DNA of 12,911 nt from the NCBI GenBank assembly GCA_028277515.1, contig JANQGC010000305.1:1-12911 (forward strand), given 5' to 3'. Each line of letters starts with the position of its first letter. Position 1 is the stretch's first letter. Below the pieces are notes generated by a model. The model made no database searches and was not told the DNA's origin. It was given only the letters and a program-made list of their open reading frames with translations. Shown here one piece after another: positions 1-4,868 of the stretch. Source of the stretch: Anaerolineae bacterium. Lineage in GTDB: Bacteria > Chloroflexota > Anaerolineae > Promineifilales > Promineifilaceae. The translations under genes were made by a program, and so were the position numbers.

Positions 1-660
1 GACGAATACATTGCCATTCATGCCAATGGCGATTCCTCTAACATCATCGAACTGGCCAGCGCCACCGCCAGGGAAGCCGGCCTGGCAGTTGGCGGCGGCG
101 GTGCAAACTTCATAGCCTGTAGATGGATTAGCGGCGTCTACATTCCAACCCCCAGCAGCGATAAATGGTCCGCCGCTGCTTAGTATTTGCAGCCTATTAT
201 TTTCTCCATCAGCGACATATAAATTGCCGGCGCTGTCAACCGCCATTCCATTTATCTCATCAAACTGCCCGGCGCCCCCACCTTGAATACCGGCCTGGCA
301 AGCATTGCTACAGATTTCGAATTGGTTTGCGCCACTTGCGACGCCCCAACCCCACATCTCGATGAAATTTCCATCACGGTCAAAAATTTGGATGCGATGA
401 TTAGAAGCATCAGCAGTATAGACGCGGTTGCCATCAACTGTAATGCCGCTGGGGCTATCAAATTGATTTTCGGCCGTGCCTGTGCTGCCCCAGCTCAACA
501 AAAAATTGCCAAGCCCATCAAATTTTTGTACGCGATCGTTGGATTCCCCGGTTACATAAACATTGCCTTGATCATCCGTAGCGATGTAGGAGGGACTTTC
601 AAATTGACCGTCACCGGAGCCGGTTTCACCCCACTCATTTTGTAAGAGCGGAGGCCCTTG
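1..660 (-). repeat. NHL beta-propeller 3 (partial, residues ~1323 onward)
   Basis: Three blades and the start of a fourth are visible: PSYIATD, PSGITVD, INGMAVD and VRGIAIG. The window ends in the fourth. The preceding nt 661-729 encode the N-terminal half of a third SpaA-like module (TVLKETDPPGGQNFDF), so its C-terminal half is predicted outside the window, after about two more blades. Confidence 0.75.
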
Positions 661-3600
661 ACGTCCATCGAGGATGAAATCGAAGTTTTGCCCGCCGGGC
701 GGATCGGTCTCTTTAAGGACCGTGAGCGAGCTAACCTGCTCATTGATCAAGGTGCAATCTGTCTCCTGGCCGGCCGGCAGCAGTAAATCAATCGAACTGC
801 CTATCTGGGTAACCTCTGTAGCGCCGCAATTCGCTTCGCTTAAAATCCATCCTGGCGGCAAATCCTCGCTGATGCGTGTGTGCACATCGGAGGCTAGCAA
901 ATTATTAAATGATTGAGACTGCCCATCTTGCAGCGAACTGGTGCTGATCTTGACCAAACCATCATCCAGAGCAAATAGATGTCCTGCAGAATTGACGTCA
1001 AGATTACCCTCACCAATAGACAAACTATCTAATAGATAGGTTAAATCGTCCACCAGGCTGCCGGCGGTGTCGACCACCAGCAGCATGCCTGGGGATTCAC
1101 TTAATACATAGATGTTATTTAGAGCATCAATGGCCAGGGCAATAGGTTCCTCAAATAAACCCGGCGCAAGCTCACCAAAGTAGGTGCCATCCGCTTCAAA
1201 AATTTGCACATTGTCATTTGCTTTGTCGGCAATATAGGCCCGGTCAGAGGGGCCGATAATGATGGCCGAGGGAGAATCAAATTGACCGGGCCCGCTCCCT
1301 GCTGCTCCCGCCTGGCAGGGACCTGGGGCTGTACAGATTTCAAAGCCTGCGCCGCCCCCGGGGTCGACATCCCAGCCATAGGTGAGCAAGAAGTTACCAC
1401 TGCTGTCGAATTTTTGTGCCCTGTTGTTATTGTTTTCAAGGATGTATATATTGCCGCTGTTGTCCACAGCAACATCGCCAGGAAAAAATAACTGACCGGC
1501 GCCTGACCCTGCTGTACCGGTCTTGCAATCGGCCGCTACAGTACAGACTTCAAAATCCGTATCCCCATTGCCGGCGATCACATCCCAGCCGGCCGCCCAA
1601 AGGAAATTTCCGCCGGCATCAAACTTTTGAATGCGCTGATTGATACTTTCGCTGACGATAATATCGTCATTGTTGGGATCAGCAGCCATGGCAGTAATGT
1701 TATTAAATTGTCCACCTAATGCGCCTGCCTCACCAAACGATATTAAGCCAATTAAATCGGGGTCATATTTTAAAATCTCATCAAATTGGCGAGAGCCAAC
1801 CAATATATTATCTGAACCATCTACAGCCAAACTATTGAGTGGTAAATTCTGATCCGGTTTTTCATAAAATTGGGTCACAGCGATATCAAAACTTTGGGTA
1901 TCATCACCAATAACCTCCTTGATCACATTCAAATCGGCACGAGAGTTGTTTTGGAAGGTACAGGTGATGTCGGAGCCAAGTTCGACCGGGATAATGACCC
2001 CGTTTTCAATTTGCTCAAGGATGAGGTTTTGATCGCCCTCTTGGCAGATGATGCCGCCCGGTTCCTGCAGCAGCCAGTTTTCAGGCAGCAGTTCGCTGAT
2101 ACTATAGTTTCCCTGCGGGGCGATTATTGACTGATATTGGGGGATGCCGTCCTCATCATCGGGAAAAGCTTCATCCAAAACCAGATCAACCGTTGAAAAC
2201 AACACCACTTGAAACCCACCCACGCTGACAAACACCTGGTCTGAACTTTTTACTGCCAGGCCCCTTGCTCTACCTCCTACATTCCATTGGTTTAGGAAGC
2301 TGCCGCTGCTGGAAAAAACCTGCACCCGATTATTGAATAAATCCGCAACATATATTTGGTTCAGGCTGTCAACATCGACGCCAACTGGGCCATCGAACAT
2401 GCCCGGCCCATTCCCAAAGCTGCCCCATTGGGTGAGAAATAGGCCATCATCACTAAAAATTTGCACCCGATGATTGCTCCTTTCGGCCACAATGACCCGC
2501 CCGCCGCCATCGACAGCGATGCCTTCAGGATTTCGAAATCCACCCGGATCGGCGCTAAAACTACCGGCCTGGCAGCCGGTTATACAAATTTCGGCCGCAC
2601 TGCCCCCGTTGACATCAAAACCCCACATGCGCAGAAAATTGCCGACAGCATCAAACTTCTGCACACGGTTGTTGCCCCGTTCAACGACGTAAATATTGCC
2701 GGCATTATCAACGGCAAGGTCATAGGGCTGGTCAAACTGTCCTTCGGCCGAGCCGCTGCTGCCAAATGTCAATAAATGATTGCCGCTGCCGTCGAATTTC
2801 TGTATACGATCATTGTCAGAATCGGCCACATAGACATTATCCGAACTGTCCACTGTCACGCCTCGGGGATTGTCAAACTGACCATCGGAAGTGCCAAAAC
2901 CACCCCACTGCAGCAAAAATTGACCATTGGCATCGAATTTTTGGATGATATCCTTGCCGCTATTACTGACAAACAGTTGTTCACTTGAATCAACGTCCAT
3001 ACCTTCAACATTGGCAAAAGATCCACCGAATAGATTGGAGCCGAATATCTCAAGTCCAGGAACAAACGGCCTGACAAAGGGCAGATCGGTCTCGAAGATG
3101 AAGTTGGTGCCATCCTGTGGGTCGGCCTCCTTGACGATGGTCACCAGGCCACCGTCCAGTTCATAAGCGCCGATGTCGCAGTCCGCTCCCTGCGGGCGGG
3201 TGACACCGCGCTGGTCGACGCTGTTCACCGGATCGCTGGTGCAGCTTGCCGTGTTCGCTGCATTGAAGGCATCGCTAGTAGGCAAGATAGCATGGGTCAA
3301 CGTCGGACCGCCGTTGCCGGCCAGCGGCTGAAGAAGGGCGCTGCCATCTTGGATGTCGTTGGGTTCCATAAAGCCGCAAGTTGTGCCGCTTTCCAGGTTG
3401 TGGTCATCAGATTGCAAAGAATTGGCATTATGTAGATAACAATCTTCCTCGTTGCGCTGATCGGCGACTATAGAATTTTCGATAAAGGCAATAGCACTGT
3501 CGTCATCAACAACATTAATGTAAATCCCAGACCCGGAATCTTCCGCAAAGTTATCGGTGACGGTAATGTTAATCAGATTAGCTTCGTTTTCATCATTAAT

Positions 3601-4626
3601 ATAAATTGCGCCGCCGTCATCAGCGACGTTGCCGCTGAAGGTGCTGTTAACGGCATTCAATGTGGATGGTTGGAAGATTGTTATATCTTCGAAATCTTCT
3701 TCTCCTGCCATATAGATGCCGCCACCGCTATACCCAGCGAAGTTGTTGATCACGGCCGAGCGGTCCAGGTTGAGAATACTACTGATGATAAGATATATGC
3801 CCCCGCCTAAACCGAAATCATTGGCAATATTATCGTTTAAGGTGCTCTCGGTGATGGTTAGTTCGATTCCAAACAGTGCCATGCCCCCCGCAAATGATGA
3901 TACATTGTGGGAAATGATGCTGTTATCGATCGAACCCATCCCACCAATAAGGGTCAAACCGCCGGCATTATTTTCAATTGTCGAATTGAAGGAGACGCTG
4001 CTGTCGTTCATGGTGAATTCAGCACCACTTCGATGTATGCCACCGCCTGCTAGATTATAAATAATTTGACTGTTTTCAACGGTCAGGTTGCCAATGGCCC
4101 GAATCCCACCGCCGAAACCATCCGGATTGCCATCGCGCACGGTGATGCCTTGAATGGTAAGCGATAGGTTTCGGTTTTCCTCGGGATCTAAATCTATAAC
4201 GCGATTACCGCTGCCAGGCGTTGTGGGATCCCCTAAACCATTACGAATGATGGTCAGGTCACTGCCTGCACCTTGAATGGTCAATGTGTCGGTGATATCG
4301 AGATCGCCACCAAGGTTTAAATCATCATTAAACCCTGGCGGCAAATCAAGGGTATAAACCCCGCCAGGGAGGATGATCGTGTCGTCACCTGTGCCTGCAT
4401 CGCAGTCACCGGATGTCGTGTCTGAATCGGTGTTGGCATTATTGATTGCTTCGCGCAGGGTGCACAGGTTGTCGCCGGCGATCAGGTTATCGTCGGTTGA
4501 GTCCACCGTGATCACCGCCAGGGCAAAGAGCTGCCGATAGGCGATGAGGATGGTGAGGATGATGGCAATGAGGATGCCGGCAAGAATCAAAGGGCGAGAA
4601 TCGGTGCTGCGAATCGAGGTTGTCAT
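1..4626 (-). CDS. Giant secreted CSLREA / beta-helix / NHL-propeller surface protein (partial, C-terminus outside window)
   Basis: I read this frame codon by codon and found no stop from the ATG at 4626 to position 1, giving at least 1542 residues with the C-terminus missing. An AGGAGG (4634-4639) lies 7 nt before the ATG. Residues 12-30 are hydrophobic and end near an ALA (35-37) signal-peptidase-like site, so export is likely. Residues 55-62 hold the CSLREA-type motif CTLREAIN. Residues about 80-430 are a beta-helix rich in GGGIY/GNV-type turns. CDIGAYEL (483-490) is the usual end of choice-of-anchor-Q/CSLREA domains. From 491 on, SpaA-like modules alternate with NHL propellers bearing motifs such as NRVQKFD.SGNFLL and P.GIAVD..GN.YVAD. 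Such proteins are usually extracellular adhesion or matrix proteins; the ligand cannot be read from sequence. No cell-wall or sorting anchor is visible because the end is missing. Confidence 0.93.
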   Translation of the reverse strand, partial: MTTSIRSTDSRPLILAGILIAIILTILIAYRQLFALAVITVDSTDDNLIAGDNLCTLREAINNANTDSDTTSGDCDAGTGDDTIILPGGVYTLDLPPGFNDDLNLGGDLDITDTLTIQGAGSDLTIIRNGLGDPTTPGSGNRVIDLDPEENRNLSLTIQGITVRDGNPDGFGGGIRAIGNLTVENSQIIYNLAGGGIHRSGAEFTMNDSSVSFNSTIENNAGGLTLIGGMGSIDNSIISHNVSSFAGGMALFGIELTITESTLNDNIANDFGLGGGIYLIISSILNLDRSAVINNFAGYSGGGIYMAGEEDFEDITIFQPSTLNAVNSTFSGNVADDGGAIYINDENEANLINITVTDNFAEDSGSGIYINVVDDDSAIAFIENSIVADQRNEEDCYLHNANSLQSDDHNLESGTTCGFMEPNDIQDGSALLQPLAGNGGPTLTHAILPTSDAFNAANTASCTSDPVNSVDQRGVTRPQGADCDIGAYELDGGLVTIVKEADPQDGTNFIFETDLPFVRPFVPGLEIFGSNLFGGSFANVEGMDVDSSEQLFVSNSGKDIIQKFDANGQFLLQWGGFGTSDGQFDNPRGVTVDSSDNVYVADSDNDRIQKFDGSGNHLLTFGSSGSAEGQFDQPYDLAVDNAGNIYVVERGNNRVQKFDAVGNFLRMWGFDVNGGSAAEICITGCQAGSFSADPGGFRNPEGIAVDGGGRVIVAERSNHRVQIFSDDGLFLTQWGSFGNGPGMFDGPVGVDVDSLNQIYVADLFNNRVQVFSSSGSFLNQWNVGGRARGLAVKSSDQVFVSVGGFQVVLFSTVDLVLDEAFPDDEDGIPQYQSIIAPQGNYSISELLPENWLLQEPGGIICQEGDQNLILEQIENGVIIPVELGSDITCTFQNNSRADLNVIKEVIGDDTQSFDIAVTQFYEKPDQNLPLNSLAVDGSDNILVGSRQFDEILKYDPDLIGLISFGEAGALGGQFNNITAMAADPNNDDIIVSESINQRIQKFDAGGNFLWAAGWDVIAGNGDTDFEVCTVAADCKTGTAGSGAGQLFFPGDVAVDNSGNIYILENNNNRAQKFDSSGNFLLTYGWDVDPGGGAGFEICTAPGPCQAGAAGSGPGQFDSPSAIIIGPSDRAYIADKANDNVQIFEADGTYFGELAPGLFEEPIALAIDALNNIYVLSESPGMLLVVDTAGSLVDDLTYLLDSLSIGEGNLDVNSAGHLFALDDGLVKISTSSLQDGQSQSFNNLLASDVHTRISEDLPPGWILSEANCGATEVTQIGSSIDLLLPAGQETDCTLINEQVSSLTVLKETDPPGGQNFDFILDGRQGPPLLQNEWGETGSGDGQFESPSYIATDDQGNVYVTGESNDRVQKFDGLGNFLLSWGSTGTAENQFDSPSGITVDGNRVYTADASNHRIQIFDRDGNFIEMWGWGVASGANQFEICSNACQAGIQGGGAGQFDEINGMAVDSAGNLYVADGENNRLQILSSGGPFIAAGGWNVDAANPSTGYEVCTAAANCQAGFPGGGAGQFDDVRGIAIGMNGNVFV
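937..1875 (-). repeat. NHL beta-propeller 2 (six blades, residues ~918-1230)
   Basis: Six more divergent blade cores are visible: LNSLAVD, ITAMAAD, PGDVAVD, PSAIIIG, PIALAID and EGNLDVN. The last one, ending in GHLFALDDGLVKIS, is degenerate. Two blades carry a paired-cysteine insert (FEVCT....C and FEICT....C). The propeller interrupts the second SpaA-like module (N-terminal half nt 1876-1938, C-terminal half nt 730-936). Confidence 0.75.
2161..3087 (-). repeat. NHL beta-propeller 1 (six blades, residues ~514-822)
   Basis: Six blade cores can be counted: VEGMDVD, PRGVTVD, PYDLAVD, PEGIAVD, PVGVDVD and ARGLAVK, each followed by a strand like NIYVVE or VYVAD and then an RVQKFD-type strand. Six blades is a normal closed NHL propeller. 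It sits inside a SpaA-like module, whose N-terminal half (nt 3088-3162) and C-terminal half (nt 1939-2160) flank it. Confidence 0.8.
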
Positions 4627-4633
4627 GATAGTT

Positions 4634-4639
4634 CCTCCT
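4634..4639 (-). promoter_or_regulatory. Ribosome binding site of the surface protein
   Basis: On the minus strand this reads AGGAGG, a full consensus Shine-Dalgarno, 7 nt from the ATG at 4626. It fixes the start of the giant gene. Confidence 0.85.
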
Positions 4640-4656
4640 GGTGGGGAATCTTTAAT

Positions 4657-4689
4657 CAGTGAGCAGTAAACAGTTGGCAGTGACGCAGT
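4657..4689. repeat. CAGTNNN heptamer tandem array
   Basis: CAGT occurs at 4657, 4664, 4671, 4678 and 4686: four steps of 7, 7, 7 and 8 nt. This is a short degenerate heptamer array in the probable 5' leader of the surface-protein gene, just upstream of its AGGAGG. Heptameric short tandem repeats are a known class in bacterial intergenic DNA. A function here is not evident. Confidence 0.6.
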
Positions 4690-4868
4690 CCGAAAAGACA
4701 AACACGGCCGGATCATGAGTGGATAATAACGATTTTAATGAGTTTTTCTGTTTTTGACCATTTAAATCCATTGTAAATGTAGTGGGCGAATCTTACAGGG
4801 ATTATTACGAGGGGAGTGGGCAAGTAGCGGGTGTGCGAGTGGCGAATTCATCGTCATCGAATGTGGTC
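4690..4868. other. Divergent intergenic region, no gene seen
   Basis: With its flanking sites, this makes up the 306-nt gap between the surface protein and the TetR gene. It contains an AT-rich stretch (about 4725-4780), one further TTGACC half-site-like hexamer (4754-4759) and one CGGCCG (4705-4710). I could not assign a convincing minus-strand promoter for the surface gene, and saw no small coding frame with a ribosome binding site. Confidence 0.5.

What the first reader, a model, noticed from the sequence alone, without database searches (positions are those of the whole stretch)
1..3162. Three SpaA-like sandwich modules, each split at the same loop by a whole NHL propeller
The surface protein does not simply string domains together. 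Module 1 begins with LVTIVKEADPQDGTNFIF (from nt ~3150), is interrupted by a six-bladed NHL propeller (nt 2161-3087), and resumes with NYSISELLPENWLL...ITCTFQNN (nt 1939-2160). Module 2 begins at once with LNVIKEVIGDDTQSFDI (nt 1876-1938), is interrupted by another six-bladed propeller (nt 937-1875), and resumes with DGQSQSFNNLL...LPPGWIL...TDCTLINE (nt 730-936). Module 3 begins with TVLKETDPPGGQNFDF and enters a third propeller. In ordinary proteins of this type the KETDP...FDF strand leads directly into DGQSQTF...LPPGW...CTF.N. The same insertion point used three times implies duplication of a composite 'propeller in sandwich' unit, a possibly undescribed rod-with-heads surface architecture. 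The module assignments are seen in the sequence; the fold nesting is inferred.
Basis: partly seen in the sequence, partly recalled or inferred. Interest (0 to 1): 0.75.

Follow-up and report, generated by a model that had tools for sequence, protein, structure and literature searches.

The report
Propeller domains nested inside clasp domains
A bacterial surface protein carries wheel-shaped propeller domains, each set inside a small clasp-like domain at the same loop; relatives do the same, and the clasp keeps the residues that in related domains form a covalent lock, so this may be a natural way to display a domain on a stalk without pulling on it.

Summary
The 1572-aa open-ended ORF has two complete SpaA-type modules, each interrupted by a six-bladed NHL propeller, and the start of a third. 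Removing a propeller extends the match to Pfam SpaA_4 to positions 1-106 and 3-106 of 107; the natural order, C-half plus next N-half, does not. I tabulated 37 such composites in 20 proteins, window included. Relative P0123 carries an uninterrupted module next to a composite whose halves are 77% identical to it, nearly an empty-site and filled-site pair. AlphaFold gives both nine strands, with the propeller between strands 2 and 3.

SpaA_4 is listed as a predicted isopeptide-bond family (PMC12617251). Lys (before the propeller), Glu and Asn (after it) are all present in 31 of 37 composites. Best reading: a Lys-Asn clasp that closes a covalent loop around each propeller and takes it out of the line of tension. 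The bond is inferred, not shown.

Domain insertion into CnaB-like domains is known (thioester, vWFA, CnaB inserts). I found no propeller insert in print. Duplication of the composite unit is not established for the window. New variant of a known kind.

The parts
4624..4640 (-). Likely true start: ATG at 4626-4624 (residue 31 of the open frame) after AGGAGG at 4639-4634; hydrophobic signal/TM segment follows
   Evidence: sequence read; translation; start choice is inference
3157..4512 (-). Head region, residues 69-520: CSLREA-type start, repetitive beta-helix-like stretch, choice-of-anchor Q domain
   Evidence: NCBIfam TIGR04214 (23.4 bits, under its cutoff of 25) and NF041518 (72.3 bits, cutoff 25); beta-helix by inspection
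3070..3156 (-). Module 1, N-half (residues 521-549)
   Evidence: own N-half HMM 21.5 bits; joined with C1 gives SpaA_4 1-106/107
2191..3069 (-). Propeller 1, six NHL blades (residues 550-842)
1945..2190 (-). Module 1, C-half (residues 843-924)
   Evidence: SpaA_4 44-106/107 alone; own HMM 29-101 of 101
1882..1944 (-). Module 2, N-half (residues 925-945)
   Evidence: joined with C2 gives SpaA_4 3-106/107; no Pfam match alone, -0.4 bits with the N-half HMM
964..1881 (-). Propeller 2, six blades by eye (residues 946-1251)
   Evidence: NHL/TEN_NHL matches; strand pattern of the model
739..963 (-). Module 2, C-half (residues 1252-1326)
   Evidence: SpaA_4 28-106/107
676..732 (-). Module 3, N-half (residues 1329-1347)
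   Evidence: own N-half HMM 8 bits at 1331-1347
1..675 (-). Propeller 3, truncated by the window end (residues 1348-1572)
   Evidence: NHL/SGL matches; 44% identical to propeller 1 over 194 aligned
3130..3132 (-). Lys529, candidate isopeptide lysine of module 1
   Evidence: alignment column K
2092..2094 (-). Glu875, candidate catalytic glutamate of module 1
   Evidence: alignment column E
1948..1950 (-). Asn923, candidate isopeptide asparagine of module 1
   Evidence: alignment column N
2044..2046 (-). Cys891, pairs presumably with Cys919 (nt 1960-1962)
   Evidence: both Cys columns invariant in 37 of 37 composites
1918..1920 (-). Lys933, candidate isopeptide lysine of module 2
865..867 (-). 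Glu1284, candidate catalytic glutamate of module 2
742..744 (-). Asn1325, candidate isopeptide asparagine of module 2
826..828 (-). Cys1297, pairs presumably with Cys1321 (nt 754-756)
712..714 (-). Lys1335, candidate isopeptide lysine of the incomplete module 3
   Evidence: by sequence; its partners lie beyond the window

Best explanation
The gene encodes an exported multidomain surface protein whose stalk consists of SpaA_4 (CnaB-like) beta-sandwich modules, each opened at the loop between its second and third strands to hold a complete six-bladed NHL propeller. The propeller closes on itself: the strand just after the N-half completes its last blade, so its two ends sit side by side and fit a hairpin loop (shown at the level of predicted strands). 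N-half and C-half fold together as one sandwich (supported, not seen in coordinates). In each module a Lys in the first strand and an Asn in the last strand, with a Glu between, very likely form an autocatalytic isopeptide bond as predicted for SpaA_4 in the literature (inferred). The propeller would then lie inside a covalently closed loop, resembling the engineered 'SpyRing': pulling force would run from the first to the last strand through the bond and bypass the propeller, which is displayed sideways as a ligand-binding head (inferred). The ligand is unknown.
Against: No coordinates were returned, so strand pairing and the Lys-Asn distance were not measured. The window model has pTM 0.53 and mean pLDDT 54 and 30 in the two blocks just after N1. 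Both structure alignments had only 9 rows. Both P0081 composites lack Lys and Glu (one lacks Asn too), and L085 and L086 lack Glu and Asn, so the architecture can exist without the bond. The Lys of L085 and L086 was lost by my hand-cut N-half and is uncertain; L085 may have one. The seeds of my HMMs come partly from the same proteins as the composites. No solved structure is convincingly related in sequence to the uninterrupted P0123 module (best E 1). No structural match to a CnaB fold was obtained, because propeller-bearing chains filled the lists.
Confidence: 0.68

Rival explanations
1. The contiguous stretch between two propellers (C-half of one module plus N-half of the next) folds as its own circularly permuted sandwich linker, so propellers and linkers simply alternate and nothing is nested.
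For: Those segments are adjacent in sequence; the window model shows one long strand (model residues 402-422, window residues 916-936) running from C1 into N2.
Against: Natural-order C1+N2 and C2+N3 add nothing to the SpaA_4 match (22.6 and 27.7 bits against 22.9 and 27.8 for the C-halves alone). Open frames with one composite have no second half to pair with (P0123, L080, L082, L083, L087, L088; L082 and L083 are cut by their contig starts). P0123's composite follows a complete uninterrupted module and is followed by an Ig-like domain and another complete module.
Confidence: 0.08
2. The nesting is real but the clasp does not form an isopeptide bond; only the sandwich packing and the disulfide hold it, and the propeller is an ordinary ligand-binding insert.
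For: Cys pair in 37 of 37 composites while the K/E/N triad is complete in 31 of 37. The SpaA_4 bond is predicted, with no solved chain listed for that family, in the table of PMC12617251.
Against: The triad is kept or lost largely as a unit, and sits at positions that fit the published SpaA_4 triad.
Confidence: 0.22
3. The arrangement is an assembly or chimera artefact of repetitive genes.
For: Many sources are metagenome bins, and repeats assemble badly; L091 is spread over two frames and P0048 ends in an apparent frame change.
Against: The same junction in 20 proteins, not all independent (four loci are from G296, and P0001 and P0122 may share a contig), with no stops inside the matches listed and six blades in 30 of 37.
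Confidence: 0.02

Closest known systems
SpaA_4 (PF24514), predicted CnaB-like intramolecular isopeptide domain family (PMC12617251, passages)
   Same: Near end-to-end profile match of the joined halves; Lys, Glu and Asn fit the published triad; the paper notes disulfides are prevalent in the family
   Different: The uninterrupted modules (14 seeds) run straight through; here a propeller separates Lys from Glu and Asn
Domain insertion into CnaB- or CnaA-like isopeptide domains, as in Spy0125/Cpa and RrgA (PMC12617251; Cpa also in PMC6194298, passages)
   Same: A large domain inserted between the bond-forming residues of an isopeptide domain
   Different: Inserts named there are thioester, vWFA or CnaB domains; here an NHL propeller, repeated in tandem. 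The table row for 2XID (segments 291-384 and 588-598; that it is Cpa is recalled) puts the insert between Glu and Asp; here it lies between Lys and Glu
SpyRing (engineered; PMC4748275, abstract and opening text shown with the outline)
   Same: A domain cyclised by the two parts of a split CnaB domain
   Different: SpyRing is artificial; [quoted passage not shown] Here the parts are natural, in series, and the bond is unproven
Six-bladed NHL propellers (Thin, TRIM71, PknD)
   Different: I know of no insertion of those propellers in another domain (recalled, not searched); the ligand of the window's propellers is unknown

Membership tests
SpaA_4 (PF24514) | Profile match of one whole module | tested here: met
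   Joined module 2: 31.2 bits, 3-106/107, above the cutoff 27.3. Joined module 1: 25.2 bits, 1-106/107, below the cutoff on its own. Whole protein 39.5 bits
SpaA_4 (PF24514) | Lys, Glu and Asn at the predicted isopeptide positions | tested here: met
   Both complete window modules have all three; 31 of 37 composites do
SpaA_4 (PF24514) | Isopeptide bond formed | not testable with these tools
   Needs mass spectrometry or a structure
CnaB-like fold | Structural match to a solved CnaB domain | tested here: inconclusive
   Propeller-bearing chains filled the match lists; best PDB sequence match of an uninterrupted module E 1
Six-bladed NHL propeller | Six NHL repeats closing a ring, last blade completed by the N-terminal strand | tested here: met
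Domain insertion in an isopeptide domain (Cpa/RrgA kind) | Large domain inserted between the bond-forming residues | tested here: met
   In both complete window modules the propeller lies between Lys and Glu/Asn; that the residues bond is not shown
Fibrillar adhesin | Surface anchor and adhesive activity | not tested
   C-terminus lies outside the window; signal/TM-like segment by inspection
ScyF scytonemin-biosynthesis NHL protein (NF035926) | Equivalog score above cutoff | tested here: met
   381.3 bits against cutoff 350, but spread over 7 stretches of a protein with three propellers, best stretch 555-705; I judge the name misleading and do not file it there; scytonemin genes were not looked for

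The most novel reading that the evidence does not exclude
These are natural isopeptide-cyclised propellers in series: each clasp domain locks a propeller into a covalent ring and carries the stalk's tension past it, and the same scaffold accepts different inserts (two propeller subfamilies at one loop, a Laminin-G domain at another loop in P0124, a domain with weak galactose-binding-like matches at a third in L092 and L093), making SpaA_4 a general mount for binding heads.
Probability: 0.45. Interest if true: 0.72.

Novelty: new variant of a known kind. Interest (0 to 1): 0.56.

Why it matters
It would be a natural counterpart to engineered SpyRing cyclisation, and a way to display a folded head on a stalk without loading it. 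It supplies a near empty-site and filled-site pair within one protein (P0123), so the effect of the insert and of the bond on stability can be measured directly. It also warns that domain annotation can miss SpaA modules split by large inserts and can misname such proteins after their propellers.

Tried and rejected
Own whole genome: none held, so the contig could not be extended past position 1. The nearest genome among those sampled is G385 (65% and 68% identity over two neighbour genes), whose composite protein L079 has the closing C-half after its last propeller. A search with a single P0001 composite, scored on its last blade and C-half, had 67 candidates and none at E 1e-3. Class sample: 396 genomes, at most 12 candidates scored each, so composites in 5 of them are a lower bound. 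Family sample: 52 genomes, 18 with a match at E 1e-8; composites in 5 (G385, G296, G042, G073, G157). I inspected at least one matching stretch in 14 of the 18; G401, G412, G413 and G419 were not inspected, nor were all matches of G296. Phylum sample: 400 genomes, at most 12 candidates scored, matches starting at model position 1 only in G042 and G073; the fetched loci of the other genomes, L112-L118, hold no composite by my scan. Contrast: P0018, P0025, P0031 and P0037 carry propellers and one near-complete SpaA match elsewhere, and L103 has eleven blades before an uninterrupted module, so the two domains also co-occur without nesting. Fold searches of both models returned propeller-bearing chains in the rows shown. 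The Deinococcus SOD-propeller protein among them is described as a fusion; the passages I saw mention no inserted propeller (PMC12362111). Literature searches for a propeller or NHL domain with SpaA/CnaB/isopeptide domains; none seen in the listings (one search listed 20 of 41 papers, all with 0 uses of 'propeller'); only open-licence papers are held. Not measured: Lys-Asn distance. Searched but not used: (RrgA mechanics).

Full report
Observation. The minus-strand frame 4716..1 is open at position 1 and 1572 residues long. The likely start is the ATG at 4626, behind AGGAGG. After a signal/TM-like segment and a beta-helix-like region ending in a choice-of-anchor Q domain, the chain reads N1, six NHL blades, C1, N2, six blades, C2, N3, and about three and a half blades to the window edge.

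Test of the split. Pfam SpaA_4 (PF24514, 107 positions) matches the C-halves alone at 44-106 and 29-106. Joining each with its own N-half extends the match to 1-106 and 3-106 (25.2 and 31.2 bits, from 22.9 and 27.8). The natural order, C1 plus N2 or C2 plus N3, gains nothing (22.6 and 27.7 bits); the N-halves alone match nothing. The gain is small in bits because the N-halves are short. With an HMM from 14 uninterrupted modules, 22 composites of the window and 8 relatives give C-half matches starting at profile position 16-29 in 19 and 42-48 in 3, and N-halves above 5 bits in 15, ending at 20-32. The N-half HMM had 40 hits above 2 bits in the 16 proteins set aside as SpaA-bearing and none in the other 112; the 40 are 14 seeds, 19 N-halves before propellers and 7 starts of other SpaA modules. 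In the eleven genome-derived frames it finds 13 of 15 N-halves and nothing else above 2 bits.

Relatives. Protein searches (best 120 of 2050 listed, 9 listed) gave eight proteins with composites: P0001, P0003, P0048, P0081, P0115, P0121, P0122, P0123. A sample of 396 genomes of the class of G001, the genome of an Anaerolineales record, and the 52 genomes held for the family of G385, gave eleven more open frames with composites, in G385, G296, G042, G073 and G157. In total 37 complete composites in 20 proteins were tabulated with the window. My blade HMM counts six blades in 30 of 37; twelve in the second composite of L079, in L085 and in L086; five in each window composite (six by eye); fewer in L089. 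In P0121 (first composite) and P0122 (first and third) the propeller has the TVAG/FSGDGG-like repeat of the teneurin-like NHL type, against the WG...GQF type in the neighbours (subfamily naming partly by eye): two propeller subfamilies at one site. Propellers and SpaA modules also co-occur without nesting (P0031 and others; L103).

Mechanism. A survey of intramolecular isopeptide bonds (PMC12617251; introduction and passages read) lists SpaA_4 with Lys704, Glu766, Asn814 as predicted triad in its example. It places the bonded residues of CnaB-like domains on adjacent first and last strands, says both folds tolerate domain insertions (its figure legend names CnaB, vWFA and thioester inserts), and cites inextensibility of CnaB-like domains of Spy0128 under tension. 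In the composites the triad is complete in 31 of 37; the exceptions are P0003_1025 (K, E, D), L083 (K, E, S), both P0081 composites, L085 and L086. Of 14 uninterrupted seeds 9 are complete and two lost all three. Over the 51 modules none of the 6 lacking Glu has Lys in its column, and 43 of 45 with Glu do (Fisher p 1.6e-6; relatives are not independent, and the L085/L086 Lys is uncertain). Two Cys are present in 37 of 37. From this I infer a covalent clasp around each propeller, akin to the engineered SpyRing, whose authors wrote that the approach is not known in nature (PMC4748275). Load bypass and ligand display are inference; the ligand is unknown.

Other inserts in the same fold. P0124 has two SpaA_4-type modules split at profile about 75/77; Laminin-G domains are found in the protein, the best stretch (1222-1373) lying in the first of these inserts. 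L092 (twice) and L093 (once) are split at roughly profile 35-55 by about 145-200 residues, with only weak galactose-binding-like matches (E 0.015 and 0.0071, both under their cutoffs). L091 has an unknown insert at the propeller site, spread over two frames. So the fold looks like a general mount in these bacteria.

Evolution. For the window, scaffolds are 24% and propellers 39% identical. Nearest neighbours lie in the same protein for 12 of 29 scaffolds and 10 of 29 propellers (L085 and L086 left out, single-composite proteins not counted). Recent duplication fits L084 and some others; exchange or repeated insertion fits P0121 and P0122.

Verdict. Real, recurrent, an insertion architecture of a published kind with an insert I did not find in print. 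New variant of a known kind.

Noticed in passing
P0001, P0003, P0031, P0121, P0122 C-termini: Five of nine propeller-plus-SpaA relatives read end in a short tail [YF]LP[IFL]V.[KR]; P0123, P0115 and P0081 end in variants, P0048 in an apparent frame change. It could be an unrecognised C-terminal sorting tail.
   Followed up: no
P0124 residues about 1061-1525 and 1535-2003: SpaA_4 modules split near the last strands by about 370 residues, with Laminin-G domains, a second insertion site in the same fold.
   Followed up: partly
L092 and L093 (open frames of 3068 aa and, cut by the fetched stretch, 3400 aa): SpaA_4 modules split at a third place by a domain with only weak galactose-binding-like matches.
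   Followed up: partly
L091, minus strand, frames at 3880 and 4844: An unknown insert at the same loop as the propellers, spread over two frames.
   Followed up: partly
L079 (second composite), L085, L086: Twelve NHL blades between the two halves: two propellers in one loop, or a larger ring.
   Followed up: no
window 1..4716 minus: NCBIfam would name this protein ScyF (381.3 bits, cutoff 350), probably because matches in several propellers add up.
   Followed up: no
P0001 and P0122: Both come from contigs of the same length (42978), perhaps one contig with two such proteins.
   Followed up: no
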